Shown piece after piece: positions 1 through 58,501 of a stretch of DNA of 64,000 nucleotides. Below the pieces are notes generated by a model, which saw nothing but the letters and a program-made list of their open reading frames with translations, was not told where the DNA came from and did no database searches. Origin of the DNA: a virus; the IMG/VR virus record IMGVR_UViG_3300035665_000001, positions 62,001-126,000 of that record. One strand, given 5' to 3'. The position numbers were made by a program, and so were the translations under genes. Position 1 is the stretch's first letter. The number at the start of each line of letters is the position of its first letter.

Positions 1-1407
1 CTACAACCATCACCTATAGAGGCTGTAAAGCAAGGTGCGGAAAAATCTAACCTAGAAATAACAGATGCAACCAAACAATCTGATGAAAAAGCAAAAATGC
101 AGGCAACAATTGATGCTGCAATAGAAAAACAAACAAAAGCCAGAGCAGAACAGGTTGAAAAACATGGTGAAGATTCAACAGAAGTTAGAATGATTGATGG
201 AGATTTAAAAAGTCTCAATAAACAAAAAACTAATTTGGCAGATAGCACAATCATACCCACGATACAAAAAGATGCAGAAAATAAAGTTGGTGAGATAACA
301 AACACCACACCTAAGGAACATCATTTAGATGGAACAATAAAAGGATTAGAAAACGCAGCAAAAACTTATAAAGATCGTGGAATGAATGATAAAGCATCTG
401 AAATTGAATCTCAAATAGAGGCAATGAAAAATTTACGTGATGAGAGCATTGAAAGAGATAAAACCCCTGTTGAGAGAACAGCACCTAGAAATCCCACATC
501 ATATGGTGGTATAGGAGGATTTATTACTAGCCCATTGAACAGTAGTTCAGCAGATATAGGGAAAACATTAGCTAGTATGGGAAATAGTATGGCAGATGTC
601 GGAAATTTAATGACATCAACAATTTCGGATGCTTTTGATTTTAGTGGGGATGATATTTTAGACACTATTGCAGAATCCACAACTATTGATTCAAATGAAT
701 TAGGTTGTGACATTGGTGAAACAATGAGCAATGGCAGTTTTGGAGATACATTCACAAATATGTTTGAAAATTCAACAAATCAATCAGATTTATCAGACAT
801 GGGGTCATCTGACAGATTATACAGTGGTCCACTTGCACCAACAGGTGGTTCAGATATGATGTCTAGTATGAGTTCCGCAATTACTCCTAACTTTTTAGGT
901 TTTGAAAATGGTGGTTTAACACCATCACAACCAAACTCAATATTAGAAGCATTAACTGGTATGCAAGGTGCGGCAGGAATAGTTCATACAAATGAATTAG
1001 TAGTTCCACAAGGGTTAGTTGGAACTTTACAGAATTTAGTTGCTCCTAATGCAGCATCTACACCTGGCTATATTCCATCATCATCGGGAAGTACACCTAG
1101 TGCAATATCTGGAATAACTCCAGGGTTTAGTGCACCCGTAGCATCATCGGGGTTAGCTGCAAATAGTGCTGCTCCTGCAAATCAAAATAAAACTGAAAAC
1201 ACTACTAATTCGTCAAATACTGATAGACTATTAGGATTAATTCTAGCAGAATGTCAAAGACAATCTGGTTTCTTAGGCAGTAGTGCGAGAGAGGCAGCTG
1301 CACAAACTAAACAATCTGCTCAAACATATAAAACAGGTGTCGATAGATTGGATAACTCAAGACAAATGGACATTAATTCAAAAAGTGATAGTATTAGAAT
1401 GACTTAA
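1..1407 (+). CDS. Tail tape-measure-like protein, C-terminal part (5' cut by window edge)
   Basis: The reading frame is open from base 1, so the true start lies outside the window; the first internal ATG is at 97. The visible part begins with a charged, Gln/Lys-rich helical stretch. A Ser/Gly/Asn-rich low-complexity section follows. Further on is a segment reading FENGGLTP, then GIVHTNELVVPQGLV. Gly-rich 'ENGG...VHTNE.VVP' segments of this kind are typical of the C-termini of phage tail tape-measure proteins, which set tail length and are packed inside the tail tube. The C-terminus returns to a Gln/Ala-rich helix. It precedes the portal gene on the same strand with a 52-base gap. T4 gp29 does not sit next to gp20, so position does not help; the call rests on the motif alone. 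It could be another internal virion protein. Confidence 0.45.
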   Translation, partial: LQPSPIEAVKQGAEKSNLEITDATKQSDEKAKMQATIDAAIEKQTKARAEQVEKHGEDSTEVRMIDGDLKSLNKQKTNLADSTIIPTIQKDAENKVGEITNTTPKEHHLDGTIKGLENAAKTYKDRGMNDKASEIESQIEAMKNLRDESIERDKTPVERTAPRNPTSYGGIGGFITSPLNSSSADIGKTLASMGNSMADVGNLMTSTISDAFDFSGDDILDTIAESTTIDSNELGCDIGETMSNGSFGDTFTNMFENSTNQSDLSDMGSSDRLYSGPLAPTGGSDMMSSMSSAITPNFLGFENGGLTPSQPNSILEALTGMQGAAGIVHTNELVVPQGLVGTLQNLVAPNAASTPGYIPSSSGSTPSAISGITPGFSAPVASSGLAANSAAPANQNKTENTTNSSNTDRLLGLILAECQRQSGFLGSSAREAAAQTKQSAQTYKTGVDRLDNSRQMDINSKSDSIRMT

Positions 1408-1459
1408 TTTGTATAATTAACACTAAATAATTTATTATTATAATATAAAAAAGGACAAC

Positions 1460-4400
1460 ATGGAAATTTTGAATGAAAATTTAAACCATTATTTAAATGA
1501 AAATAACAATTACACACCTTTAAATGAAGCTGCTACTCCTATGTGGATGTCTTATATGGATGCGTTTAACGCTTTCATGGAGCAAAGTGGTAAAAGACTA
1601 GATAGATATACCACATATGATGAAATGGATCGGTATCCAGAAATACATTTGGCACTTGATATTATCTCAACAGAAATTTTTGTATTTGATCAAATAGCGA
1701 ATTCACCGTTTTTATTTAACACCAACGGAAAAATACCAGAACCAACATTAAATACATTAATTAAAAAATTTACAGATGTTTTAAAATTAAAAGAAACATT
1801 ACCCTACGCAGTAAGACAAGCATTAAAATATGGTGACAGTTTTTACTTTTTAGTTAAAAACAGTAATGGTAATATGGCTGGTTTAAGACGAATAGATAAC
1901 AAAGATATTGATTTTATCGAATATGATGAAGTAGGTATCGAACCTATGAATTATTACATTTCTAAAAAGAAAGTAGATGAAGCTCAAATGGGTAGTTATT
2001 TAACTTTTCTAAAATATCAAAATTTAGAATCTGCATCACAACAAAAATTAGCTGATGTGGCATCAAAAGATGGTGACGACTTTTATATTATCCAAAGAAA
2101 TCAAATGGTTAGATTTATGAATCATGGTCAAAATTCACAATTTTTTCCATTTGGTGAATCATACTTAGAATCAATTTTTCCATATTGGAAAAAAGTATCA
2201 CTTTTAGAAGATTCATTAATTATTTATAGAATCGTTAGAGCCCCTGAACGTCGAGTTTTTTACATTGATGTTGGTAAAGCACCTGCAAAAATTGCTGAAA
2301 AAGTAGTAATGCAGACAAAAGATGAAATCAAACGCAGAAGAACTGCGGCATCACAGGAAAATCAAGAAATGGGAATTGCCTCATCTTTTAATCCTTTATC
2401 CATGCAGGAGGATTATTTTTTCGCACAGCGTTGCTTATCTTTAGATACAAAAATACCACTTTTGGATGGAAGAACGTTATCTTTACAAGAACTTATAGGT
2501 GAATATACCGATGGTAAGAAAAATTACACTTATTCAGTCGATAGAAACACTGGTAAAATGATTCCAGGTGAAATTGAATGGGCGGGAATTACTAAAAAAG
2601 ATGCTGAGTTGGTTAAAGTTACGCTAGATAATAATGAAGAAATAATTTGTACACCTGATCATAAATTTATTTTGCGGGATGGTAGTTATTGTGAGGCAAA
2701 AGATTTAGACGGTAAAGAATTGATGTCATTGTATGATATTCGGAAATCTTTAGTTGTTGATGAACTCTCTTATAGAGAAGATGTTGGTTGTTTGACAATT
2801 AAAGATTCAGGAGAAAATCATAATTTTGCTATTGCAGCAGGAGTATATGTAAAAAACTCGGATGGGCGAGGATCAAGAGTAGAAACATTGCCTGGAGCGT
2901 GTTTGGCATTGGATACCAAAATACCATTGTTAGACGGTAGAGAATTGATGCTTTCAGAAATTATTGATGAATGGGATAATGATAAAGAAAAAGTTAATTG
3001 GGTTTATTCATGCGATCCACTAACTGGAGAATTAGCACCTGGAAAAATAACTTGGGCTGGCATCACTAGAAAAAATACTCAGGTAATGAAAATTACTTTA
3101 GATAATGGCGAAACAGTAACATGTACCCCAGATCATAAATTCCCTATTAGAGATATTGGTTTTGTTGAAGCTCAAGACTTATCTGTGGGTCAAAGTTTAA
3201 TCCCTTTTAGAAAAAGACTTGAGAAAGTTATGCCAAGAACTAAGGAATATGAACAAGTTTTTGATGTTTCTAAAAATAAGTGGGTATTCACGCATCGTAT
3301 AGTGAGTGAATGTCTACCGACAGAATTTGTTCATAATGTGGAAAAAGAGAAAAAATGCACTGTTCATCATGTAGATTTTAATAGATTTAATAACAATCCT
3401 ACTAACTTAGCTCGAATGAGCAATGATGATCATAGAATTTTACACCAAGATTTGACAGGGTTCGGTAATGAATTTTGGAATAGTATGTCTAAAGACGACT
3501 ATGATAGAATTTGTATGAAAATGTCAGAAGGTATTGCTGAAAAAAGAAAGGATACAAAATATAATGAGACTTTTTTAGAAAAGCAATTAAATGCAGCTAA
3601 AAAAGGTTCTAAAGCGAGAATTACAAAACAGAATTCTGATGGTGAGTTTAAAAAAGCAGTTTATAAAAAATCTGGTGATAGTTTAGCAAAAAGAATTCGT
3701 GATGATAAGGGTTATCAAGAACAGTTGTTAAATCATCTAGCAGATGTGCATCAACCTTGGAAAAATGCTGAAACAGTTTTTGATAGAACCTTGTTGGAAA
3801 TGACAATTTCAAGTATTAAAGAAAATAAAACCAACCATAAAAAAACGATTTTGTATAAATTGAGTACAAATACTGATTTTATGAATCATTTTCAAAAAAT
3901 AAATATTTTTGATGGTGGTGTTGATAAAAGAAAATTAGATACTTTCGGTAATCAACATATGGATAAATTGTTAAAAGAATTTAATTATCAAGGGTGGAGA
4001 GATTTTACAACTACAATTGAAAATTATAACCACAAAATTGTTAAAATCGAAGTATTGGACTATGGTATTGATGTGGGAACGATCACAGTTGATGGTAATG
4101 AAGAAATCCATAATTATCATACATTTGCATTGAGTTCGGGTGTTTTTACAAAAAATTCTAATCTTGGTGAAATTTCTGACGTCAATTACTTCTATAAAAA
4201 ATTAGTTGCAGGTTTAAGAATACCTCCAACCTATTTCAATCCGGAAGCACCACCAACATGGAATGATGGTAAAGTGGGTGCAGCTTTAGCAGAGGAAGCC
4301 AGATTTGGAAAATGGTTGACCGAAATAAGAGAACAATTCTTATGGGATTTTAAAATTTTATTTTTGGATTTCTTAAAAGAAAGAGGGGTCAATTTATTAG

Positions 4401-4627
4401 CAGATGATTTAGATATGCGTTGGAAAGAATCAATCAACGTTGCAGAAAATCAAGAACTGGATAAAATGGCACAGAGACAAACTATTTTCACTGGATTCCC
4501 AATGGAACAATTCTCACCACAATTCCTACAAAAGAAAATTTTAGGTTGGTCGGAAGAAGACATTCAAGAAAATATGACAGCGTTAATAAAATGGCAAAAA
4601 TTTAAGGATAGTAATAATTTAACATAA
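1460..4627 (+). CDS. 20: Portal protein (T4 gp20-like) containing two inteins
   Basis: This is the dodecameric portal vertex through which DNA is packaged and to which the neck attaches. The 1055-residue product contains two in-frame inteins, residues 325-466 and 481-899. Removing them leaves 324 + 14 + 156 = 494 residues, close to T4 gp20 (524). The joined extein reads YFFAQR, then SDGRGSRVETLPGA, then SNLGEISDVNYF, which continues like T4-type portals. The N-terminal extein has the WMSYMDAFNAFMEQSGKRLDRY and DRYPEIHLALDI region expected of gp20. The start is ATG 1460 after AAAGGA. Both inteins have Cys1, a block B TPDH, a terminal Asn and Ser+1, so post-translational excision is expected. 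It is followed by a minus-strand Rep gene rather than by gp67 as in T4. Confidence 0.9.
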   Translation: MEILNENLNHYLNENNNYTPLNEAATPMWMSYMDAFNAFMEQSGKRLDRYTTYDEMDRYPEIHLALDIISTEIFVFDQIANSPFLFNTNGKIPEPTLNTLIKKFTDVLKLKETLPYAVRQALKYGDSFYFLVKNSNGNMAGLRRIDNKDIDFIEYDEVGIEPMNYYISKKKVDEAQMGSYLTFLKYQNLESASQQKLADVASKDGDDFYIIQRNQMVRFMNHGQNSQFFPFGESYLESIFPYWKKVSLLEDSLIIYRIVRAPERRVFYIDVGKAPAKIAEKVVMQTKDEIKRRRTAASQENQEMGIASSFNPLSMQEDYFFAQRCLSLDTKIPLLDGRTLSLQELIGEYTDGKKNYTYSVDRNTGKMIPGEIEWAGITKKDAELVKVTLDNNEEIICTPDHKFILRDGSYCEAKDLDGKELMSLYDIRKSLVVDELSYREDVGCLTIKDSGENHNFAIAAGVYVKNSDGRGSRVETLPGACLALDTKIPLLDGRELMLSEIIDEWDNDKEKVNWVYSCDPLTGELAPGKITWAGITRKNTQVMKITLDNGETVTCTPDHKFPIRDIGFVEAQDLSVGQSLIPFRKRLEKVMPRTKEYEQVFDVSKNKWVFTHRIVSECLPTEFVHNVEKEKKCTVHHVDFNRFNNNPTNLARMSNDDHRILHQDLTGFGNEFWNSMSKDDYDRICMKMSEGIAEKRKDTKYNETFLEKQLNAAKKGSKARITKQNSDGEFKKAVYKKSGDSLAKRIRDDKGYQEQLLNHLADVHQPWKNAETVFDRTLLEMTISSIKENKTNHKKTILYKLSTNTDFMNHFQKINIFDGGVDKRKLDTFGNQHMDKLLKEFNYQGWRDFTTTIENYNHKIVKIEVLDYGIDVGTITVDGNEEIHNYHTFALSSGVFTKNSNLGEISDVNYFYKKLVAGLRIPPTYFNPEAPPTWNDGKVGAALAEEARFGKWLTEIREQFLWDFKILFLDFLKERGVNLLADDLDMRWKESINVAENQELDKMAQRQTIFTGFPMEQFSPQFLQKKILGWSEEDIQENMTALIKWQKFKDSNNLT
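2432..2857 (+). other. Intein 1 of the portal gene (mini-intein, 142 aa)
   Basis: The splicing element occupies residues 325-466 of the portal ORF. It starts with CLSLDTKIPLLDG (block A, Cys1) and has CTPDHKF (block B, TxxH). It ends GENHNFAIAAGVYVKN, followed by Ser+1 of the extein. There is no room for a homing endonuclease domain, so it is a mini-intein. The penultimate residue is Lys, not the usual His. Its first 100 residues are clearly similar to those of the second intein 42 bases downstream, which suggests the two are close paralogues. Confidence 0.9.
2900..4156 (+). other. Intein 2 of the portal gene with HNH-type homing endonuclease domain (419 aa)
   Basis: The element occupies residues 481-899 of the portal ORF. 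It starts CLALDTKIPLLDG, has CTPDHKF in block B, and ends NYHTFALSSGVFTKN before Ser+1. Between the splicing blocks lies about 280 residues, including CTVHHVDFNRFNNNPTNL near residue 633. That is an HNH-type endonuclease core (His-His, Asn, and a later DDHRILHQ). This domain could drive homing into intein-free portal alleles. As in intein 1, the penultimate residue is Lys. Only 14 extein residues separate the two inteins. Confidence 0.9.
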
Positions 4628-4650
4628 TTATCACCCAAATATTACTAAGT

Positions 4651-5844
4651 TCAGTCGTCAGATTCATAGTCAATTGAACTTAGTAAATTATTCATTAATT
4701 CAATGGTTTCCATTGGATTCTTAGTGTAAGCGTCATTTGAAAAAACACCTCTAATCAAATATCCATCAATATAAATGAATTGTTCATCACAATCATCCAT
4801 CGTTTTTGCTAATAATTCATAAATTTCATTTCTCACATCTTTGTGAGTATTTTTCAACCACTCATCAATTCTCATTTCAGCATCATATCTTTCTTCATTT
4901 TTATTAATATCAGTTTCAATCCACATTTCCTCATCAATAACTTTATATCCATTTTTCACTAATTTATCCAATTTATTTTTAGATTTACTGTAAAATTTAT
5001 TTGAAGTTATTGTCTGTTGTAGTAAACCAAGTTCTATTAATCTTGATTCCGGTTGTTTGGTTATATTGAATTTAACTTTAGTTACATTCGCCCTACCACC
5101 ATCCAATCGTTCTTTTATAGGTTCATATGTTACCCGAATATCGGATTTATCATTTATTTCATTTATCGCCTTTTTTAAAATGTCATTGTTGAAGTACGCA
5201 AATTTTTTATTTCTTTCAGAATTGGAATTTAATAAACCTAATACTAAATCATAATCGATGGTTTTAGTTTTTATATTTTCATAATCTTTGAGTAATTCAT
5301 ACAGCAATTTAGTTTGCTTCAATTGTAACGAATATTGAATTGATAAGTGCATTTTTGAAAAATAATTTTTAACATTCAAAACCATACCAATAATTTCACC
5401 ATCTATGAGCAGACTAACCCTTTGACGTTTTTCATATTTGTTACTGATAACCGATACCTTATGAACAAACGATGTGTATGATTTTACCAAATCTTTATTT
5501 TTTTGTAAAACATTTATCTTTACCTCCTTCATTCGTAAATCTCTAAGATGTCTGATAATAGATTCAAAATTACCGGAATCGTATTTTCCAAACGTTTTTG
5601 CAATATCCTTCAAATCCAAAGTAAGTTTAAATGAGGTTTCTTGATCATAAGGTAAATTATTAGAAATAATACTTTTACGTGACTCATACAAAATATAATT
5701 TATTAGATCAATTTCCATCGATGTTACCGTTGCAGTAATACCCTTACTATTTTCATCATAAAACAAAATTTGACAAAGTTCCGATGGTTTATTGATAGTA
5801 AGTCTTTCAGAAGTTACTAATCTTTTATGTTTTTTTTCTGGCAT
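4651..5844 (-). CDS. Plasmid-type replication initiator (Rep_3/RepB family)
   Basis: The 397-residue protein has the pattern of Rep_3-family initiators, two winged-helix domains that bind iterons and open plasmid origins. The clearest part is residues 165-265: SIQYSLQLKQTKLLYELL, a KTKTIDYDLVLGLL helix, FNNDILKKAINEINDKSDI and then VTYEPIKE with VTKVKFNI. This is the second winged helix of the family. The N-terminal part, around MEIDLINYILYESRK and RHLRDLRMKEV, fits the first domain. A C-terminal acidic tail of about 120 residues is of unknown function. It is transcribed opposite to the flanking virion genes. Its upstream region (5845-6606) contains three 32-bp direct repeats, as expected for an autoregulated iteron origin. 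I know of no equivalent in T4 itself. Confidence 0.8.
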   Translation of the reverse strand: MPEKKHKRLVTSERLTINKPSELCQILFYDENSKGITATVTSMEIDLINYILYESRKSIISNNLPYDQETSFKLTLDLKDIAKTFGKYDSGNFESIIRHLRDLRMKEVKINVLQKNKDLVKSYTSFVHKVSVISNKYEKRQRVSLLIDGEIIGMVLNVKNYFSKMHLSIQYSLQLKQTKLLYELLKDYENIKTKTIDYDLVLGLLNSNSERNKKFAYFNNDILKKAINEINDKSDIRVTYEPIKERLDGGRANVTKVKFNITKQPESRLIELGLLQQTITSNKFYSKSKNKLDKLVKNGYKVIDEEMWIETDINKNEERYDAEMRIDEWLKNTHKDVRNEIYELLAKTMDDCDEQFIYIDGYLIRGVFSNDAYTKNPMETIELMNNLLSSIDYESDD

Positions 5845-6606: not shown

Positions 6607-7299
6607 ATGGCTACATGGTATAATGGCGACGACACCTATTTGGTAACTGGAAATATTACCGCTGCTGAAGCATACAAAGATTCACTTGCAGTAAATAAAA
6701 GTTTTGGTTCACCTGCATTAAATTTAGTTGGTGATGATGATGTTCATAACGCTGAGGATTTTGAAACCAAATTGGTTCACAGATTCAGAGTTAGATTTGG
6801 TGTTTTCAAACAAATCGGACAACATTTAAAAACTATCACTAAACCAAATGTAACATTTGCAGAAGTGGAAGTTCCAAAATTAAATACAAAAGTATATTTT
6901 GCTGGTAGAAAAACTCAGGATGCTATGAGTATTGAGATTGATGATTCGTTGGATAACGCAGTTGCAAAAGCGACTCAAACTCAATTGCAAAAACAAGCAA
7001 ACTTTGATACATCATTACATGCTAAATCATCTGCTGGATATTTTTTCAATGTAACAGCTGAAGAATTATCAGGTGATGGTACTGCTTTGTTGGCGTGGTA
7101 TTATGATAAATGTGTAGTTATGTCTTGTGATTACGGTACATTGGATTATTCTGATGATGGTGCAACTGCTAACGTAACATTAAGTGTTAGATATGCAAAC
7201 TTTACCACTTGGATTCATGACTTTCAATATGCTTCTGCTAATCCAACTGAAAAAGATCCAACTAATGCACAACCATCTGATCCAGGTTCATGGAAATAG
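6607..7299 (+). CDS. 19: Tail tube protein (T4 gp19-like)
   Basis: The 230-residue protein has the tail-tube pattern. An N-terminal arm is followed by RFRVRFGVFKQIG, then NVTFAEVEVPKLNTKVYFAG, DAMSIEIDDSLDNAV and a terminal strand pair (DYGTLDYSDDGATANVTLSVRY). This matches the order of strands in T4 gp19, whose 163 residues are shorter. It would polymerise into the inner tube of the contractile tail. The start is ATG 6607 with AAGGAG seven bases upstream. A strong terminator follows directly, so it is probably expressed as a single-gene, high-level late transcript. In T4 gene 19 precedes gene 20; here it follows the portal and is separated from it by the Rep cassette. It could instead be a tube paralogue. 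Confidence 0.7.
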   Translation: MATWYNGDDTYLVTGNITAAEAYKDSLAVNKSFGSPALNLVGDDDVHNAEDFETKLVHRFRVRFGVFKQIGQHLKTITKPNVTFAEVEVPKLNTKVYFAGRKTQDAMSIEIDDSLDNAVAKATQTQLQKQANFDTSLHAKSSAGYFFNVTAEELSGDGTALLAWYYDKCVVMSCDYGTLDYSDDGATANVTLSVRYANFTTWIHDFQYASANPTEKDPTNAQPSDPGSWK

Positions 7300-7323
7300 T
7301 TTAACGTTAGTTTTAAAACTTTT

Positions 7324-7357
7324 AAAAGGTGTAGATGTTTTTCTACACCTTTTTTTT
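7324..7357 (+). terminator. Rho-independent terminator after tail tube gene
   Basis: The stem AAAAGGTGTAG / CTACACCTTTT encloses an 8-base loop and runs into eight T residues. It ends the transcript of the tail tube gene. Confidence 0.9.
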
Positions 7358-7396
7358 GCCTTTTTGATTGAAAATGAATAATTAAACTGATATGCT

Positions 7397-7404
7397 CATA
7401 AATA
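7397..7404 (+). promoter_or_regulatory. Late-promoter-like CATAAATA upstream of the head operon
   Basis: One mismatch from TATAAATA, located 73 bases before the gp67-like start and just after the tail tube terminator. It would start the gp67-gp21-gp22 transcript. Confidence 0.45.
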
Positions 7405-7476
7405 AGAATTAAGGGCACTTATTTGTTTTGAAATCAAATAGGCATAATACTAAAAAAATTTTAAAAAGGAGTTCTT

Positions 7477-7731
7477 ATGACAGTAATAAGAAATATGATT
7501 GATGCATTGGCAGATGATGATTTTTCTGGTGCAAGAGAGGCATTGAAAACTACATTAGCACAATACATTAGTGGTACTAATTATGTTTCTAATGCGGATA
7601 TATTTGGTAATCGTTACCACAATCCAAATGATGAATCTGATTTATTAGATTACGATCGTGAATATCAAGTTAATACCGATGCTGGTAATGATGAGGATGA
7701 TGAATATAACAATTATGATGATGAGGATTAA
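7477..7731 (+). CDS. 67: Prohead core protein (T4 gp67-like)
   Basis: A small (84 aa) protein with an N-terminal helix (MTVIRNMIDALADDDFSGAR) and a strongly acidic tail (NDEDDEYNNYDDED). T4 gp67 has the same size (80 aa), the same helix-plus-acidic-tail design and the same place directly before gene 21. It is a prohead core component degraded by the gp21 protease. Only two bases separate it from the gp21 start. Sequence identity is too low to be certain, so the call rests on size, composition and synteny. ATG 7477 has an AAAAGGAG ribosome site. Confidence 0.65.
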   Translation: MTVIRNMIDALADDDFSGAREALKTTLAQYISGTNYVSNADIFGNRYHNPNDESDLLDYDREYQVNTDAGNDEDDEYNNYDDED

Positions 7732-44995: not shown

Positions 44996-46756
44996 ATGGC
45001 TAAACATTATAAGATTGTTAAGAGAAATGGGGAAATCGTTCCCTTGGACATTACAAAAATAAGACAGGTTATTGAATGGGCTGCAGTTGGTTTGGATATA
45101 AATCCCATTGAGTTAGAGTCTAATTTACATATGCGTTTTAGAAATGATATGACTACCAAAGAGATTCAGGAAAATATTATTGATACCGCATTACAGTTAA
45201 CTTCAATAGATTCACCCGATTGGAGAATATTAGCTGCAAGATTAAAACTTATGGATCTATATAAGGATATTAAATTTGAAAAAGGTTATGATACCTTTGG
45301 CTATGATGATTATTTGCGTCATGTCACAACATCCGTAGAACAGGGTTTATATGATGCAGCATTATTATCATTATACACAAATGATGAAATTTCAACTGCT
45401 GGTACATTTTTAGATATGCGTTACGACATGGATTTTGATTATGCTGGTGCTAATATTATGATTCACAGATATTTGATTACCCGCGAAAATTCTCCTTGGG
45501 AATTGCCTCAGGAAGCATTTTTGACTGCCGCAATGTTGATTGAACGATACCAACCAAAAGATATTCGGTTAGATTTGGTTCGAGATACATATGAAAAAAT
45601 GGCAAAAAGAAAATTATCATTGGCCACACCTATGTTGATGAATTTAAGAAAACCATTTGGTAATTTATCATCATGTTTTATTGTTGCATTTGGTGATAGT
45701 AGAGATTCAATCTTTTATGTTTTAGATCAGATTGCAAAAATTAGTAAAAATGGTGGTGGTGTAGGAGTTAATGTTTCGAGAGTGCGGTGTAAAGGATCGT
45801 GGATTAATGGAACACCAAATGCATCTGGTGGGGTAATTCCGTGGATTAGAAATATTAATGATGTTGTTGTTTCTGTAAATCAACAGGGTAAAAGAGCTGG
45901 TGCTGCAACAGTAGCATTGGATTCGTGGCATATGGATATTGAAGATTTCTTAGAACTTCAAACTGAAAATGGTGACCATCGAATGAAAGCATTTGATATT
46001 TTTCCACAGGTGGTATTATCGGATGAATTTATGCGTCGAGTTGAAGCGGATAAATTGTGGACTTTAGTTGATCCTCATGAAATTAAAATTAAATTTGGTG
46101 TGGACATCGCTGAAATATGGGGTACTGAATTTGAAAAATTGTATCAACAAATTGAAAATCTTATTTTTGATCATGGCAAAAAATTCAACGTTGATTTAGA
46201 AAATCTCAGTGTGGAAGATTTTGAAAAAGAGTATAAAGAGTTGTTGATTGGTAAAGATGTTGGAAGTTTAACCGATCACACCTGTTTAAAAATGATTAAA
46301 CGCATTAGTGCAAAAAATCTTTTCAAAACGATTATGAAAACACAGGTTGAAACTGGTATGCCTTACTTGACCTTTAAAGATGCAATGAACAGAGCAAACC
46401 CAAATAAACATGATGGCATGATTGGTAATGGAAATCTGTGTTTATCTGGCGATACTATAGTGAATGCAAGAATTGATGATAGTTTTGTTGATCTAAGAAT
46501 GGAGGAGCTAGTTGAAATTTACAAAGAAAATAAGAATATTTCGGTTAAATCATTTGACCATGAAACTGATACCACAGAATACCAAACTTTAACTGATGCG
46601 TTTTTAACTTATGAAAAATCAAATGTTATGAAATTAACAGATAGTGAAACAGGAAATTATGTTATTTGTACACCAGATCATAAAATTTGGACTGAAAACC
46701 GAGGATATGTACAAGCTAAGGATTTGGTTTCATCTGATCGTCTTAAAATACAATAA
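44996..46756 (+). CDS. nrdA: Ribonucleotide reductase large subunit, fragment 1 of 3, fused to a split N-intein
   Basis: Residues 1-481 are the N-terminal part of a class I NrdA. An ATP-cone comes first (HYKIVKRNGEIVPLDITKIR), then SLATPMLMNLRKPFGNLSSC with the first redox Cys (Cys227, E. coli Cys225). NGGGVGVNVSRVR and the loop ending GNGNL follow; Asn480 corresponds to E. coli Asn437. Residues 482-586 are an N-intein: CLSGDTIVN (block A), ICTPDHKIWTENRGYVQAKDL (block B), end LKIQ. The enzyme reduces ribonucleotides to deoxyribonucleotides for phage DNA synthesis. ATG 44996 has an AAAGGA site. The N-intein resembles the NrdJ-1 split intein type. No NrdB is in the window. Confidence 0.92.
   Translation: MAKHYKIVKRNGEIVPLDITKIRQVIEWAAVGLDINPIELESNLHMRFRNDMTTKEIQENIIDTALQLTSIDSPDWRILAARLKLMDLYKDIKFEKGYDTFGYDDYLRHVTTSVEQGLYDAALLSLYTNDEISTAGTFLDMRYDMDFDYAGANIMIHRYLITRENSPWELPQEAFLTAAMLIERYQPKDIRLDLVRDTYEKMAKRKLSLATPMLMNLRKPFGNLSSCFIVAFGDSRDSIFYVLDQIAKISKNGGGVGVNVSRVRCKGSWINGTPNASGGVIPWIRNINDVVVSVNQQGKRAGAATVALDSWHMDIEDFLELQTENGDHRMKAFDIFPQVVLSDEFMRRVEADKLWTLVDPHEIKIKFGVDIAEIWGTEFEKLYQQIENLIFDHGKKFNVDLENLSVEDFEKEYKELLIGKDVGSLTDHTCLKMIKRISAKNLFKTIMKTQVETGMPYLTFKDAMNRANPNKHDGMIGNGNLCLSGDTIVNARIDDSFVDLRMEELVEIYKENKNISVKSFDHETDTTEYQTLTDAFLTYEKSNVMKLTDSETGNYVICTPDHKIWTENRGYVQAKDLVSSDRLKIQ
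46439..46753 (+). other. Split N-intein 1 (NrdA site before the active-site Cys)
   Basis: 105 residues starting with Cys1 and ending at the stop codon. It contains block B CTPDHKIW. It ends where classical split N-inteins end, directly after the 'VQAKDL...DRL' strand. Its partner is the 33-residue C-intein at 46856-46954. Confidence 0.88.
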
Positions 46757-46762
46757 AATTTA

Positions 46763-46800
46763 AAACATCTGTGATTATATTATTATAGATGTTTAATTTT
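46763..46800 (+). terminator. Terminator-like hairpin between NrdA fragments 1 and 2
   Basis: Stem AAACATCT / AGATGTTT with a 16-base loop, followed by AATTTTTTT. It could reduce transcription of fragment 2 and so set the ratio of the two halves. The stem is A+T-rich and the loop long, so it may be weak. Confidence 0.45.
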
Positions 46801-46855
46801 TTTAAAAAAAACAATTGAAGCGTTAAAATACAAAACGATAATACAGGAAAGTAAA

Positions 46856-46954
46856 ATGATAGAAATAGAATATTTAAATGTTGAAATTCCAGTTTATGAT
46901 ATAAATGTTAAAAAAAATAACAATTTTTATGCAAATAATATATTGGTGCATAAT
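46856..46954 (+). other. Split C-intein 1 (33 aa)
   Basis: Contains VPVYDINV-type block F (read as IPVYDINVKKNNNFYANN) and block G ILVHN, with penultimate His and terminal Asn, then Cys+1. Length and motifs are those of natural split C-inteins. Confidence 0.88.
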
Positions 46955-47890
46955 TGTCAGGAATCCTATTCAAATTTTAAACCATCAACAGTTTTAGACA
47001 GTAGAATTGAGGAAGCTGATGGAAAATTCAAAATAGTTGGTGAGGTTGATGCTGGTTTAGTGCATGTTTGTAACTTAAATAGTATTAATTTGTCCAACAT
47101 TACCGATAATGATGATTTGAAATCTGTTTGTGAAACCGCTGTTCGTTTATTAGATAATGCTATTGATTTTACTGATGTTCCAATTCGAGAAGGTGAAATT
47201 CACAATAATTTATATAGAACTATTGGTGTTGGTAGTATGGGTTTAGCTGATTATCTTGCAAAAAGACAAATTCAGTATGCTAATTCAACAGAGGTGGTCG
47301 ATGAATTATTTGAAAATATTGCTTACTACACTATTAACGCATCAATCCAATTAGCTAAAAAATTGGGTACATATAAAAAATATGCTGGTTCGGAATGGTC
47401 TAAGGGTTTAATTTTATGTAGAGATAGAGATTGGTTTAAAAATAACACGAAAGATCCCGCAAGATGGATGAAAACTTTTGATGATTTGAAAAAATATGGT
47501 ATTCGCAATAGTCATATTCATATGATTGCACCCAATTGCCAAGATCCGAATAATAAAATCAGAACTAAAAATGGTGTTAAATCTATTTATGATATTTTAG
47601 TCGAACAAGGGTTTGATATTGCTACTATTGAGAACAATGATCCTCATTGGGTAGATTTAAAAACTCCTATTGAGGTTGATACTTTAAATGGTGTGGATGT
47701 TTGTGACCGAATTTGGTTTAATGGAAAACAGGATACCATAAATATTGAATTTGAAGATGGTAATACCTATACTTATACTTTAAATCACAAGTTGTTAGTT
47801 TCTCGAATTGACGGAACGACCGAATGGGTTCGAGTTGATGAGTTGCAAGAAGGTGATGAAATTGTTAATCAAGATGCTGTAATTAATTAG
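46856..47890 (+). CDS. nrdA: Ribonucleotide reductase large subunit, fragment 2 of 3, with C-intein 1 and N-intein 2
   Basis: Residues 1-33 are a C-intein ending NNFYANNILVHN. The extein starts at Cys34, which is both the +1 nucleophile for splicing and the thiyl-radical Cys (E. coli Cys439) in the joined NLCQE. Glu36 equals E. coli Glu441 and Cys72 (LVHVCNLNS) equals Cys462. Extein residues 34-227 end HMIAPN. Residues 228-344 are a second N-intein: CQDPNNKIRTKNG (Cys1), YTLNHKLLVSR (block B), end NQDAVIN. A good AGGAAAG ribosome site precedes ATG 46856. The protein must splice at both ends to form part of a working NrdA. Confidence 0.92.
   Translation: MIEIEYLNVEIPVYDINVKKNNNFYANNILVHNCQESYSNFKPSTVLDSRIEEADGKFKIVGEVDAGLVHVCNLNSINLSNITDNDDLKSVCETAVRLLDNAIDFTDVPIREGEIHNNLYRTIGVGSMGLADYLAKRQIQYANSTEVVDELFENIAYYTINASIQLAKKLGTYKKYAGSEWSKGLILCRDRDWFKNNTKDPARWMKTFDDLKKYGIRNSHIHMIAPNCQDPNNKIRTKNGVKSIYDILVEQGFDIATIENNDPHWVDLKTPIEVDTLNGVDVCDRIWFNGKQDTINIEFEDGNTYTYTLNHKLLVSRIDGTTEWVRVDELQEGDEIVNQDAVIN
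47537..47887 (+). other. Split N-intein 2 (NrdA IAPN site)
   Basis: 117 residues from Cys228 of fragment 2 to its stop. Block A is CQDPNNKIRTKNGVKSIYDI; block B has TYTLNHKLLV with the usual Thr/His pair. Its sequence is distinct from N-intein 1, as expected for two splicing reactions that must not cross-react. Confidence 0.87.
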
Positions 47891-47976
47891 ATTAACATCT
47901 GCAGGTCTTAATGTTGTTTTAAGTTGAATTAAAACCATCATAAATTATTTTAAATCAAAAATTGAGAAAATGTTAA

Positions 47977-48084
47977 ATGAAAATTAAAAAGATAACTAAA
48001 AATGTTGAGAAAACAATAACCTATGATTTTGAAGTAAAAAATCAGCATCATTATTTTATGGAAAATGGTGTTGCATCACATAAT
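47977..48084 (+). other. Split C-intein 2 (36 aa)
   Basis: Starts MKIKKITKNVEKTITYDFEV, ends GVASHN with penultimate His, and is followed by Thr+1. It pairs with N-intein 2 at 47537-47887. Confidence 0.88.
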
Positions 48085-48468
48085 ACGAGTTCTAGTTTGG
48101 TGCAAGGTTGTTCTGCTTCGGTATTACCAATATTTAGTAAATTTTATGTTGATAAAAATTCTAAAGGTTCTGTGCCCATTATGCCTCCATATATCAAGGA
48201 TAACTTTTGGTACTATCAGGAATTTAAAAATATTCTTCAAAAAAATGTAGTTGATGTTATTTCGAGAATACAAAAATGGACTGATACCGGTATTTCGATG
48301 GAATTAATCATTAATTTAAATTTACCAAATGTGAACGCGAAGTATATTTACGAAACTTTGATGACCGCATGGAAAAATGATTTGAAAACAGTGTATTATA
48401 TTCGATCTGTCCAAAAAAATTCATCTGATGTATCTGCTAAAGAGGAATGTGCCAGTTGTTCGGGTTAA
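47977..48468 (+). CDS. nrdA: Ribonucleotide reductase large subunit, fragment 3 of 3, with C-intein 2
   Basis: Residues 1-36 are a C-intein (TYDFEVKNQHHYFMENGVA, ending SHN). The extein starts at Thr37 (TSSSLVQGCSASVLPIF), which completes IAPN-TSSS, a conserved NrdA segment. It carries the radical-transfer tyrosines (Tyr140-Tyr141, E. coli Tyr730/731) and the redox-active tail CASC (Cys158, Cys161). Joined exteins total 481 + 194 + 127 = 802 residues, against 761 in E. coli NrdA. The gap from fragment 2 is 86 bases, and the frame differs from that of fragment 2. The ribosome site is weak. Confidence 0.92.
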   Translation: MKIKKITKNVEKTITYDFEVKNQHHYFMENGVASHNTSSSLVQGCSASVLPIFSKFYVDKNSKGSVPIMPPYIKDNFWYYQEFKNILQKNVVDVISRIQKWTDTGISMELIINLNLPNVNAKYIYETLMTAWKNDLKTVYYIRSVQKNSSDVSAKEECASCSG

Positions 48469-55314: not shown

Positions 55315-55464
55315 TTTTAAATTTGTAATTGGGGTTTGTCGTATAGTATAAACCCCATCTAAAATTAGAAATAATTGACTTATATCTGGTTTTCCGACAT
55401 AGTATGGATAAAAAAATTGTAAAATAAAATCAACTCAACCTAATTTTGGAAAAAATAATTGAAT

Positions 55465-55611
55465 ATGTATATTAAAAATTTAAATTTAGATGATTATGAA
55501 TTAGTGTCTATTGATTCGATAACAAAAACAAATAACTTCATTCAAATGAATGATATTCAAGTTGAAGATAATGAAACTTTTTTTCTTGCAAATGGTATCT
55601 TAACACATAAT
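55465..55611 (+). other. Split C-intein 3 (topoisomerase EGD/SA site), orphan in this window
   Basis: 49 residues including YELVSIDSITKTNNFIQMND (linking strand), VEDNETFFLANG (block F) and ILTHN (block G), followed by Ser+1. The matching N-intein must be encoded elsewhere in the genome. Confidence 0.85.
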
Positions 55612-56697
55612 AGTGCTATTAGTTCATTTACCGAAATTAGAAATCCCGAAACACAAGCTGGAATGCCGTTGCGAGGTAAAGTTCTAAATGTCTATGGAAA
55701 AGCACCAATTGACGCAATGGAAAATGCTGAAGTTGCTGATATGGTTACTGCATTAAATTTAGAATTTAATGAACAGATGGGTGATTGGGTTATTCCTAAA
55801 GGTACAGGTGTGTACGATGTGACGTATGAATCAGTATTTGAGGTAGATAAGGAAGGAAACTCAATTATTAAAAATGCAACTGTATTAGGTTGCGATAAAT
55901 TTCATATTAATAAGCGTTGGGTTACTATTGATAAGTTATTTGGGCATCCAGATTCTTATCGTGGTTATATCGTTTCTATTACTGAATCCGATAAAAATAT
56001 TAGTGAAATTACGCATCCAGATTATTTTCATTTTCGTAGATTATGGGATTTTAGAGGTTTTCGTAAAGTTGGGACATCATATAAAATTACTATTGGTAAG
56101 AAATCATTTTTTTGTAATGATGTTGATGACATTTATGTTGATGGTAAATGGCAAAAAGTTTCATTATTTTTGAAAAAACCTCCTAAAACTAAAGATGAGG
56201 TTTCTGTAGAGAAAGTTGATACTGATATTGAACTTACACGCTTCAATAAATTATTAAAACCTGCGTTTGATACAAAATTAAAATTTTCCAAAGTTTTCTT
56301 GGCAACTGACGCTGATCCCGATGGTTCCGCAATTTGTAATTTAGCTGTAAATTTATTTCACGAATATTTCCCTGAATTATTTTGGGATAGTGAAAATGCG
56401 TTTATCAATCGAATTACCTTCCCGATGATTGCCGCAACTAAAGGTAAAAAAACCATTTATTTTGAAAATAGACCACTATTTGATAAAGCTAAATCGGAAG
56501 GTAAAGTTGACGATTCATATAAAATAACCTATTTTAAAGGGTTGGGTTCTATGGAGAAAGAAGATTGGGAACATGTATTTGAAAATTTAGATGATTACTC
56601 ATTTAAGATTACTGATGATGGTCATTTAGATGAGTTGATGCAAATATTTTTTGATTCCGATGCGAGTGTAAGAAAAAAATGGTTGGCAATAAAATAA
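55465..56697 (+). CDS. Type II DNA topoisomerase large subunit, C-terminal part, preceded by a split C-intein
   Basis: Residues 1-49 are a C-intein ending FFLANGILTHN. The extein starts Ser50 (SAISSFTEIRNPETQAG, MPLRGKVLNV), which is the second half of the TOPRIM EGD-SA motif, so splicing would restore EGDSA. The Mg-binding DxD is in TDADPDG (Asp282, Asp284). The part from FSKVFLATDADPDG to KGLGSMEKEDWE and the end FFDSDASVRKKW closely follows T4 gp60, the C-terminal topoisomerase piece. Between GKVLN (about residue 71) and DxD there are about 205 residues, against about 50 in E. coli GyrB. The ATPase part with its N-intein is not in this window. ATG 55465 is preferred; a TTG lies two codons upstream. 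Confidence 0.88.
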   Translation: MYIKNLNLDDYELVSIDSITKTNNFIQMNDIQVEDNETFFLANGILTHNSAISSFTEIRNPETQAGMPLRGKVLNVYGKAPIDAMENAEVADMVTALNLEFNEQMGDWVIPKGTGVYDVTYESVFEVDKEGNSIIKNATVLGCDKFHINKRWVTIDKLFGHPDSYRGYIVSITESDKNISEITHPDYFHFRRLWDFRGFRKVGTSYKITIGKKSFFCNDVDDIYVDGKWQKVSLFLKKPPKTKDEVSVEKVDTDIELTRFNKLLKPAFDTKLKFSKVFLATDADPDGSAICNLAVNLFHEYFPELFWDSENAFINRITFPMIAATKGKKTIYFENRPLFDKAKSEGKVDDSYKITYFKGLGSMEKEDWEHVFENLDDYSFKITDDGHLDELMQIFFDSDASVRKKWLAIK

Positions 56698-56713: not shown

Positions 56714-58501
56714 ATGATCGCACCTAAAAATATTCAAGGAGAGATTGAAAAATATCTCTCTAAGAAAAATGTCTATTTTGGTAATTTTTCCAATGAATTA
56801 GTAACATTTTTAGAAATTAATTTCCCACACGTTAATACCATCCGAGCAAAATGGTATATGTTTGTTCATGGTATGAATGAATTACCCATTTGTTTGTACC
56901 CATCATGTGAGACGTCTGTTAAATGGAATGAAGGGTTAAAAAAATTTAGTGATGGATGCTGTATTGATCACAATAAAAAAATAACCTCTCTTAAAAATTT
57001 TGGCGTTGACCACCCAAATAAATCTAAAAAACAACAGCGAAAAGTTAAAAAATCGATGCAAGAGAAATACGGTGTCGATTATATTACGCAGACTGATATT
57101 CATAAGACGAGTGTTATGCACAGTGTAATGGAATCTTATGGTGTTGATAATGTATTAAAATCTCCAAAAATTCGAGAAAAGATTAGAAAAACGAATTTGG
57201 AAAAGTATGGTGTCGAGGAATGTATTTCTGCACCTATAATAAGAGAAAAAAGTAAACAGACCAATCTTAAAAAATTTGGTACTGAGTGCAGTTTGTCGTC
57301 TGTTGAAGTTAGGGAAAAGGCATATAAAACGAATTTGTTCAGATATGGTTCAATTTTTCCAATGCGTAATGAAGAATTGTTGGAAAAAAGGTTACAAACT
57401 ATTATTGGTAGATATGATTCGCACGGTGTATTAGGTGATAAGAATATAGCCGATAAAGCTAGAAAAACACATTTTGCTAAATATTATAATAACAAGTTAT
57501 TGAAAAATAAATTTGTATCTCCATTGTTTACCTTAGATGAATATCAGGGTACAAAACGAGTTAAAGATTATAGTTGGGAGTGTAAGAAATGTTATACTGA
57601 ATTTATCGATAATGTTGACAATGGACATCTACCAAGATGCCCCACATGTTTTCCAAAAGATATTAAAGTTTCAAATGATGAATCGTTGTTATTCTCATTG
57701 ATAAATGTTAAAAACAAACTTCAGACTAATAGAGGTCTAATACCAAATTATGAAATTGATATATATTTACCTGATTATAAGACAGGTATAGAGTATAATG
57801 GTATGTTTTGGCATTCTGAAAAAATGGGGGTTGATCAATTTTATCATTTAGATAAAACATTAATGTCAGAAAATTCTGGTATTTTTTTGATTCACATTTT
57901 TGAATCCGAATGGGTAAAGAGAAGGTTACAAACTATAGGAATGGTTCATAGAAATATTGGTATTTTTGATATAATCATATCTATTCAGGACATTGAAATA
58001 AAGGAAATTTCGGATATAATAACCAATGATTTTTTAGAAGCCAACACCATTCATTTATTTGACAGTGTTTCTGAAAAACGAATTGGTGCTTATCATGGTT
58101 TAGAATTAGTTGCCATCATGACAACCAAACAATTTAAAAATAAAACTGTAATTACTAAGTTTTATGAAAAGATGGGTTATGGGTTTGAAGGGAATCTGTT
58201 TCAAAAAATGGTGAATAATTTTGATAATAGTTTACCTATATTTTATTATCCTGATAGACGGTACAATAAAGTTGACCAACAATTTTTATTAGATTGTGGG
58301 TTTACTTTTGAAGGTGGTACTGAACCAGAGTTAATATATAGCCGAAATATGAGTTATATTCCTGCAAATCATATTAATAAACATAACATTTTAAATTACG
58401 TTACTGATTATGATGATAAATTATCTGTTTATGAGAATATGATTGTTAATGGTTATTTAACTATTTGGGATTGTGGAAAATTAGTTTGGAAAAAAAGTTA
58501 G
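56714..58501 (+). CDS. Free-standing homing endonuclease, EDxHD/Vsr-like family (copy 2)
   Basis: The 595-residue protein is a paralogue of the one at 11078-12856 with the same order of parts. An N-terminal CLYPSC...GCCIDH cluster is followed by seven 'KNFGV/EKYGV' repeats and a zinc ribbon (CKKC, CPTC). The nuclease core then follows: NYEIDIYLPDYKTGIEYNGM-FWHSE with Glu360 and His367, then FLIHIFESEW. The Asp of copy 1 (Asp356) is Asn362 here. It begins 16 bases after the topoisomerase fragment with no ribosome site, so it may be translated by coupling. Being next to a gene broken by a split intein fits the reported link between this nuclease class and fractured genes. Confidence 0.75.
   Translation: MIAPKNIQGEIEKYLSKKNVYFGNFSNELVTFLEINFPHVNTIRAKWYMFVHGMNELPICLYPSCETSVKWNEGLKKFSDGCCIDHNKKITSLKNFGVDHPNKSKKQQRKVKKSMQEKYGVDYITQTDIHKTSVMHSVMESYGVDNVLKSPKIREKIRKTNLEKYGVEECISAPIIREKSKQTNLKKFGTECSLSSVEVREKAYKTNLFRYGSIFPMRNEELLEKRLQTIIGRYDSHGVLGDKNIADKARKTHFAKYYNNKLLKNKFVSPLFTLDEYQGTKRVKDYSWECKKCYTEFIDNVDNGHLPRCPTCFPKDIKVSNDESLLFSLINVKNKLQTNRGLIPNYEIDIYLPDYKTGIEYNGMFWHSEKMGVDQFYHLDKTLMSENSGIFLIHIFESEWVKRRLQTIGMVHRNIGIFDIIISIQDIEIKEISDIITNDFLEANTIHLFDSVSEKRIGAYHGLELVAIMTTKQFKNKTVITKFYEKMGYGFEGNLFQKMVNNFDNSLPIFYYPDRRYNKVDQQFLLDCGFTFEGGTEPELIYSRNMSYIPANHINKHNILNYVTDYDDKLSVYENMIVNGYLTIWDCGKLVWKKS

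What the first reader, a model, noticed from the sequence alone, without database searches (positions are those of the whole stretch)
44996..48468. Ribonucleotide reductase encoded in three genes and joined by two different split inteins
Fragment 1 ends in an N-intein. Fragment 2 has the matching C-intein at its start and a second N-intein at its end. Fragment 3 starts with the second C-intein. Joined exteins give an 802-residue NrdA. The first break falls directly before the thiyl-radical Cys, so that Cys is also the +1 splicing nucleophile. Asn437, Cys439/Glu441/Cys462 and Tyr730/731 plus the tail Cys pair (E. coli numbers) lie on three different chains. Activity should need two ordered or independent trans-splicing events on one middle piece. 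Split-intein NrdJ-type fragments are known from metagenomes; a three-piece, two-intein NrdA in adjacent genes is at least rare.
Basis: partly seen in the sequence, partly recalled or inferred. Interest (0 to 1): 0.92.

Follow-up and report, generated by a model that had tools for sequence, protein, structure and literature searches.

The report
Three-piece phage NrdA, two split inteins
A large phage encodes its ribonucleotide reductase as three separate proteins whose ends are halves of two different self-splicing inteins, so one enzyme is predicted to be stitched together after translation; the same phage breaks at least five other key genes in the same way.

Summary
Three ORFs (44996-46756, 46856-47890, 47977-48468) encode NrdA pieces of 481, 194 and 127 residues (802 joined, 91.6 kDa), flanked by N-intein1/C-intein1 (105/33 aa) and N-intein2/C-intein2 (117/36 aa). 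Two related phages carry an intact 798-aa nrdA at the same place with both sites empty, which fixes both junctions. Intein 1 folds as a Hint domain closest to the NrdJ-1 split intein. The first junction lies immediately before the radical cysteine (C439). The best explanation is two protein trans-splicing events. Splicing is inferred, not shown.

Klebsiella phage KP13-7 and an IMG/VR contig (L154) also have NrdA with two split inteins at about the same two sites, but with homing-endonuclease ORFs between pieces. Here both gaps (99 and 86 nt) hold no endonuclease. I found no paper describing such a NrdA.

The larger finding is the genome: 12 inteins, 10 of them split, including RecA in three pieces and terminase large subunit in four pieces scattered over 61 kb on both strands. 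The contig is incomplete and lacks nrdB.

The parts
44996..46438 (+). NrdA extein 1 (481 aa): ATP-cone, all-alpha domain, first part of barrel; C225 and N437 equivalents
46439..46753 (+). N-intein 1 (105 aa), C1, block A CLSGDTIV, block B CTPDH
   Evidence: (TIGR01445 7e-7)
46757..46855 (+). 99-nt gap, no ORF; AGGA Shine-Dalgarno-like sequence before F2
46763..46803 (+). 13-bp hairpin followed by seven T (terminator-like)
   Evidence: z -4.5; not called by the G+C-based scan
46856..46954 (+). C-intein 1 (33 aa) ending ILVHN, +1 residue Cys = C439 equivalent
   Evidence: TIGR01443 3e-7
46955..47536 (+). NrdA extein 2 (194 aa): C439, E441, C462 equivalents
47537..47887 (+). N-intein 2 (117 aa), C1, block B TLNH
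   Evidence: (3e-5)
47891..47976 (+). 86-nt gap, no ORF; weak GAGAAA Shine-Dalgarno-like sequence
47977..48084 (+). C-intein 2 (36 aa) ending VASHN, +1 residue Thr
   Evidence: 9e-5
48085..48465 (+). NrdA extein 3 (127 aa): Y730/Y731 equivalents and C-terminal CASC
55459..56697 (+). Topoisomerase II (GyrB-type) C-terminal piece starting with a C-intein (THN|SAISSFTE); partner piece not on this contig
2432..2857 (+). Contiguous (cis) intein A in the portal protein
2900..4156 (+). Contiguous (cis) intein B in the portal protein, with HNH-like insert

Best explanation
The three genes make three polypeptides. N-intein 1 on F1 and C-intein 1 on F2 associate into one Hint domain and ligate extein 1 to extein 2, placing the radical cysteine (+1 Cys) next to Asn-Leu. 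N-intein 2 on F2 and C-intein 2 on F3 do the same at Asn|Thr. The product is a normal 802-residue class I NrdA. Each split intein most likely descends from a mobile contiguous intein at a known NrdA site that was broken by a homing-endonuclease gene, since lost. Shown: gene anatomy, intact splice motifs, exact junctions, predicted Hint fold for intein 1, intermediate states in other phages. Inferred: translation of all three pieces, trans-splicing, orthogonality, loss of the endonuclease, enzyme activity.
For: Intact empty-site relatives with exactly the joined sequence. Both inteins keep C1, block B T..H and C-terminal His-Asn followed by Cys or Thr. AlphaFold of intein 1 read through the two stops gives pLDDT about 92 for both halves and about 44 for the never-translated linker; the best PDB match is the NrdJ-1 split intein fusion 8UBS (Foldseek E 3.2e-12). 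The break gives about 105 + 33 aa, close to the usual natural split of about 100 + 40 aa (PMC11923092). Same-region alleles form a series: empty (L012/L013; phiKp_21 at site 1), contiguous (CP220 and F336 at site 2; L180 at site 1), split with extra ORFs, mostly endonuclease-like (TG1, CP20, CP21, KP13-7, L154 gap 1, L180 site 2), split without (this phage; L151 site 1). dN/dS of exteins against L012 about 0.16. The same phage group keeps split inteins at the same TerL, GyrB and helicase sites in two diverged phages.
Against: No RNA, protein or splicing data. The F3 Shine-Dalgarno is weak, and a terminator-like hairpin lies between F1 and F2. No NrdB was found on the contig, so activity needs a partner from the missing part or the host. 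dS is near saturation and may date mostly from before the fracture. Relative-rate tests are mixed (p 0.006 to 1.0 with four outgroups), so slight relaxation on this branch is possible. C-intein 1 has Asn instead of the usual block-F His (own knowledge of the motif).
Confidence: 0.86

Rival explanations
1. Decaying gene: the pieces no longer splice and the phage relies on host RNR.
For: No nrdB on the contig; slightly faster evolution on this branch with some outgroups; a Campylobacter phage nrdA with similar interruptions was annotated as a pseudogene.
Against: All three frames open with start sites; every catalytic and splice residue kept; dN/dS about 0.16; TerL, which tailed phages need for packaging, is broken the same way in the same phage.
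Confidence: 0.07
2. The pieces assemble non-covalently without splicing, as in Aeromonas phage Aeh1 NrdA-a/NrdA-b.
For: Split class Ia NrdA stays functional without intron splicing in Aeh1 (PMC3653736).
Against: Here matching intein halves cap every break; the radical Cys would carry a 33-aa N-terminal leader.
Confidence: 0.03
3. Assembly or sequencing error, or stop-codon readthrough giving one protein.
For: F1 and F2 are in the same frame with only one TAA and one TGA between them.
Against: Identical second contig; F3 is in another frame; the linker is predicted with low confidence while both intein halves are confident; the gaps contain Shine-Dalgarno-like sites and a strong hairpin.
Confidence: 0.02
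4. Splicing occurs but the two pairs cross-react, giving F1-F3 skip products or circular F2 as well as NrdA. This is a modification of the best explanation, not exclusive with it.
For: Both pairs share one fold and one split position; cross-reactivity between split inteins is known (PMC3443213, title).
Against: Only about 25% identity over the aligned part, and the C-inteins differ in net charge, -2.4 and +1.8.
Confidence: 0.1

Closest known systems
Klebsiella phage KP13-7 nrdA (OP617745.1)
   Same: Two split inteins in one NrdA, second site equivalent and first site one residue away; three intein-joined pieces
   Different: Extra ORFs in every gap (GIY-YIG in one, HNH in another), a further break near SCSQG, nrdB adjacent; annotated only as nrdA_1, hypothetical proteins and nrdA_2
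IMG/VR contig 3300026484_000248 (L154)
   Same: NrdA split at both sites
   Different: DUF7487-type endonuclease-like ORF in gap 1; intein 2 itself appears to be in three pieces
Yersinia phage TG1 nrdA (KP202158.1)
   Same: Split intein at the identical NL|C439 site; N-intein 40% identical
   Different: One split only, HNH endonuclease gene between the pieces
NrdJ-1 natural split intein (PDB 8UBS)
   Same: Closest solved relative of intein 1 by sequence and fold
   Different: From a class II reductase with +1 Ser (own knowledge); Cys here
Fractured genes of Dassa et al. 2009 (paper not held; cited in PMC3653736 and PMC6892783)
   Same: Conserved phage enzyme gene broken by a split intein
   Different: Defined there with a free-standing endonuclease between two pieces (own knowledge of the abstract); here three pieces and no endonuclease
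Campylobacter phages CP20, CPt10, IBB_35, CP21, CP220
   Same: Inteins at the same two NrdA regions in various states
   Different: At most one of the two sites is split in each

Membership tests
Class I ribonucleotide reductase large subunit (NrdA) | ATP-cone, all-alpha and barrel domains in order | tested here: met
Class I ribonucleotide reductase large subunit (NrdA) | C225, N437, C439, E441, C462, Y730/Y731 and C-terminal Cys pair | tested here: met
Class I ribonucleotide reductase large subunit (NrdA) | Cognate NrdB in the genome | tested here: inconclusive
   no match on the contig, but the contig is incomplete
Natural split inteins (class 1 Hint) | C1, block B T..H, terminal His-Asn, +1 Cys/Ser/Thr | tested here: met
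Natural split inteins (class 1 Hint) | Both halves together form one Hint fold | tested here: met
   intein 1 by prediction; intein 2 only by sequence because its halves are in different frames
Natural split inteins (class 1 Hint) | Trans-splicing activity | not testable with these tools
   needs expression
Fractured genes (Dassa 2009) | Conserved enzyme gene broken by a split intein | tested here: met
Fractured genes (Dassa 2009) | Free-standing endonuclease gene between the pieces | tested here: not met
   gaps of 99 and 86 nt without ORF; such ORFs do follow the GyrB and TerL3 pieces elsewhere in the record
Group I intron interruption | Intron RNA at the breaks | tested here: not met
   no Rfam match except a chance-level sRNA hit

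The most novel reading that the evidence does not exclude
A single phage in which at least ten natural split inteins must work side by side without cross-talk, assembling NrdA and RecA from three chains each and the terminase large subunit from four chains encoded up to 61 kb apart on both strands. The nrdA locus is the endonuclease-free end state.
Probability: 0.6. Interest if true: 0.82.

Novelty: new variant of a known kind. Interest (0 to 1): 0.64.

Why it matters
Three-segment tandem trans-splicing is so far described as an engineering scheme (PMC12707363); here nature appears to use it on a central enzyme, with the catalytic radical cysteine as the splicing nucleophile. The series empty, contiguous, split with endonuclease, split without endonuclease at the same two sites makes the origin of split genes directly testable. 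One phage with ten split inteins is a ready-made test of natural orthogonality and a source of new split-intein pairs.

Tried and rejected
Intron hypothesis: Rfam scan of the locus negative. Uniqueness: an alignment-based scan of IMG/VR returned 79 NrdA loci, of which only the same virus was interrupted, but intein-based searches then found KP13-7, L154, TG1, L180, L181 and Campylobacter phages, so the NrdA-based scan was biased towards intact genes. The G+C-based terminator scan did not call the A+T-rich hairpin. Missing partners of the GyrB and helicase pieces and NrdB were sought and not found on the contig. Folding intein 2 was not possible because its halves lie in different frames. Reading Dassa 2009 failed, not held. 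A first TerL query had wrong coordinates.

Full report
Observation. The window is bases 62001-126000 of a 306,333-base IMG/VR virus record. Three + strand ORFs at 44996-46756, 46856-47890 and 47977-48468 encode consecutive parts of a ribonucleotide reductase large subunit, each break capped by intein halves. F1 and F2 share a frame with one TAA and one TGA between them; F3 is in another frame. Extein lengths are 481, 194 and 127, joined 802 residues and 91.6 kDa; chain masses are 67.3, 39.3 and 18.8 kDa.

Junction evidence. Two related phages, L012 and L013, have one intact 798-residue nrdA at the syntenic place between homologous neighbours, reading straight through both junctions. A second contig of the same virus, from another metagenome bin, is identical over 13.4 kb.

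Active site. In an alignment of six intact phage NrdAs, the equivalents of N437, C439, E441, C225, C462, the Tyr pair and the tail Cys pair are invariant. The first break is between L438 and C439, so the +1 residue is the thiyl-radical cysteine. N437 is on F1, C439/E441/C462 on F2, and the Tyr pair and tail cysteines on F3.

Inteins. N- and C-terminal intein profiles match all four halves: N-intein 1 at 7e-7, N-intein 2 at 3e-5, C-intein 1 at 3e-7, C-intein 2 at 9e-5. Intein 1 is closest to the NrdJ-1 split intein by sequence (E 1.8e-16). Its AlphaFold model, read through the two stops, is confident in both halves and not in the linker, and its best structural match is again NrdJ-1. Intein 2 matches Npu DnaE and VidaL inteins weakly in the PDB and Campylobacter phage NrdA inteins well (48%). 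The two inteins are only about 25% identical where alignable.

Precedents. tblastn with the two N-inteins against named phages found same-region alleles. Klebsiella phage KP13-7 has SNLC|CVTG...VHN|CEID and MPGE|CQSW...SHN|TSSQ in separate ORFs with further ORFs between, one of them GIY-YIG, plus a further break upstream with an HNH ORF. Its relative phiKp_21 has site 1 empty and site 2 split. L154 is split at both sites. TG1 is split once, at exactly our site 1. Campylobacter phages show contiguous and split forms. L180 has a large contiguous intein at site 1 and a split one at site 2 with a further ORF in the gap. So two-split NrdA is rare but recurrent. The window differs in having no endonuclease at either gap. 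In the literature held here I found multiple inteins in one phage NrdA (IBB_35, PMC3322345) and two-piece split genes (PMC3653736, PMC6892783), but not a three-chain, two-split NrdA. Dassa 2009, cited as reporting seven intein-interrupted nrdA in ocean data, is not held, so a case there cannot be excluded.

Genome context. A survey of the record finds 12 intein C-termini: 10 split, 2 contiguous in the portal gene. Record coordinates: NrdA (two); RecA/UvsX in 241177-241470, 241522-242856, 243946-244614 (two); TerL in 184957-185298(-), 169358-170110(-), 230010-230798(+), 200201-201511(-) (three); an AAA ATPase in 3413-5032(-) and 1110-3140(-) (one); GyrB-type topoisomerase and a helicase-like protein, only the C-terminal pieces on the contig (two). 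Family searches support TerL, UvsX, AAA ATPase and topoisomerase II; the helicase name rests on my reading of the sequence only. In the relative G001, TerL pieces 1 and 2 are one continuous protein, which gives the exact first TerL junction; the AAA ATPase, portal and NrdA are uninterrupted; the other two TerL splits, GyrB and the helicase piece are split at the same sites. Split inteins are therefore partly shared and older and partly recent, including both in nrdA. Eight other phage records with inteins had 1 to 5 C-terminal matches with the same profile (E up to 0.01), where this record has 9.

Mechanism. The likely route is invasion by mobile inteins, breakage by an endonuclease gene, then loss of that gene, leaving independent translation units. 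F2 carries one half of each intein, so it must take part in two splicing events; the sequence gives no order. The hairpin with a T run after F1 could lower F2/F3 transcription relative to F1; this is untested.

Selection. dN/dS between window exteins and L012 is about 0.16 with dS about 1.2. Relative-rate tests with four outgroups range from p 0.006 to 1.0, with no consistent acceleration. This fits a working gene, but much of the divergence may predate the fracture, so it is not proof.

Verdict. A real, clean, unusual natural three-segment protein, a variant of the known split-intein fractured gene. The genome-wide scale is the more surprising part. Interest 0.64.

Noticed in passing
record G000: 184957-185298(-), 169358-170110(-), 230010-230798(+), 200201-201511(-) (L019, L022, L020): Terminase large subunit in four pieces joined by three split inteins, scattered over 61 kb and both strands; the N-inteins are short (about 32-46 aa), an atypical split.
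   Followed up: partly
record G000: 241177-244614 (L022): RecA/UvsX in three pieces with two split inteins; the first break is inside the Walker A motif (FGDSG|SGKS) and the first N-intein is only about 18 aa.
   Followed up: partly
record G000: 1110-5032 (-) (L014): AAA ATPase split inside a Walker A motif (GEPGIGK|T) with a 29-aa N-intein and a roughly 139-aa C-intein; the relative G001 has it intact.
   Followed up: partly
window 1460-4627: Portal protein with two contiguous inteins 14 residues apart, the second with an HNH-like insert; absent in the relative G001.
   Followed up: partly
L154:5987-7981: NrdA intein 2 appears to be in three separate ORFs, the middle one (7245-7502) being intein only, without extein: a natural three-piece split intein or a decaying one.
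   Followed up: partly
L151:3224-6859: Two-piece ribonucleotide reductase split at site 1 with only 15 nt between the pieces, followed by a small-subunit-like gene containing a contiguous intein.
   Followed up: no
window 56714-58501; L022:4807-5970; L019:2116-3351: Endonuclease-like ORFs (DUF7487/Vsr-like, restriction-endonuclease-like, GIY-YIG) directly beside the GyrB, TerL3 and TerL2 pieces.
   Followed up: partly
whole record G000: No NrdB match on the 306-kb contig although NrdA keeps the class I radical-transfer tyrosines; contig incomplete or host NrdB used.
   Followed up: partly
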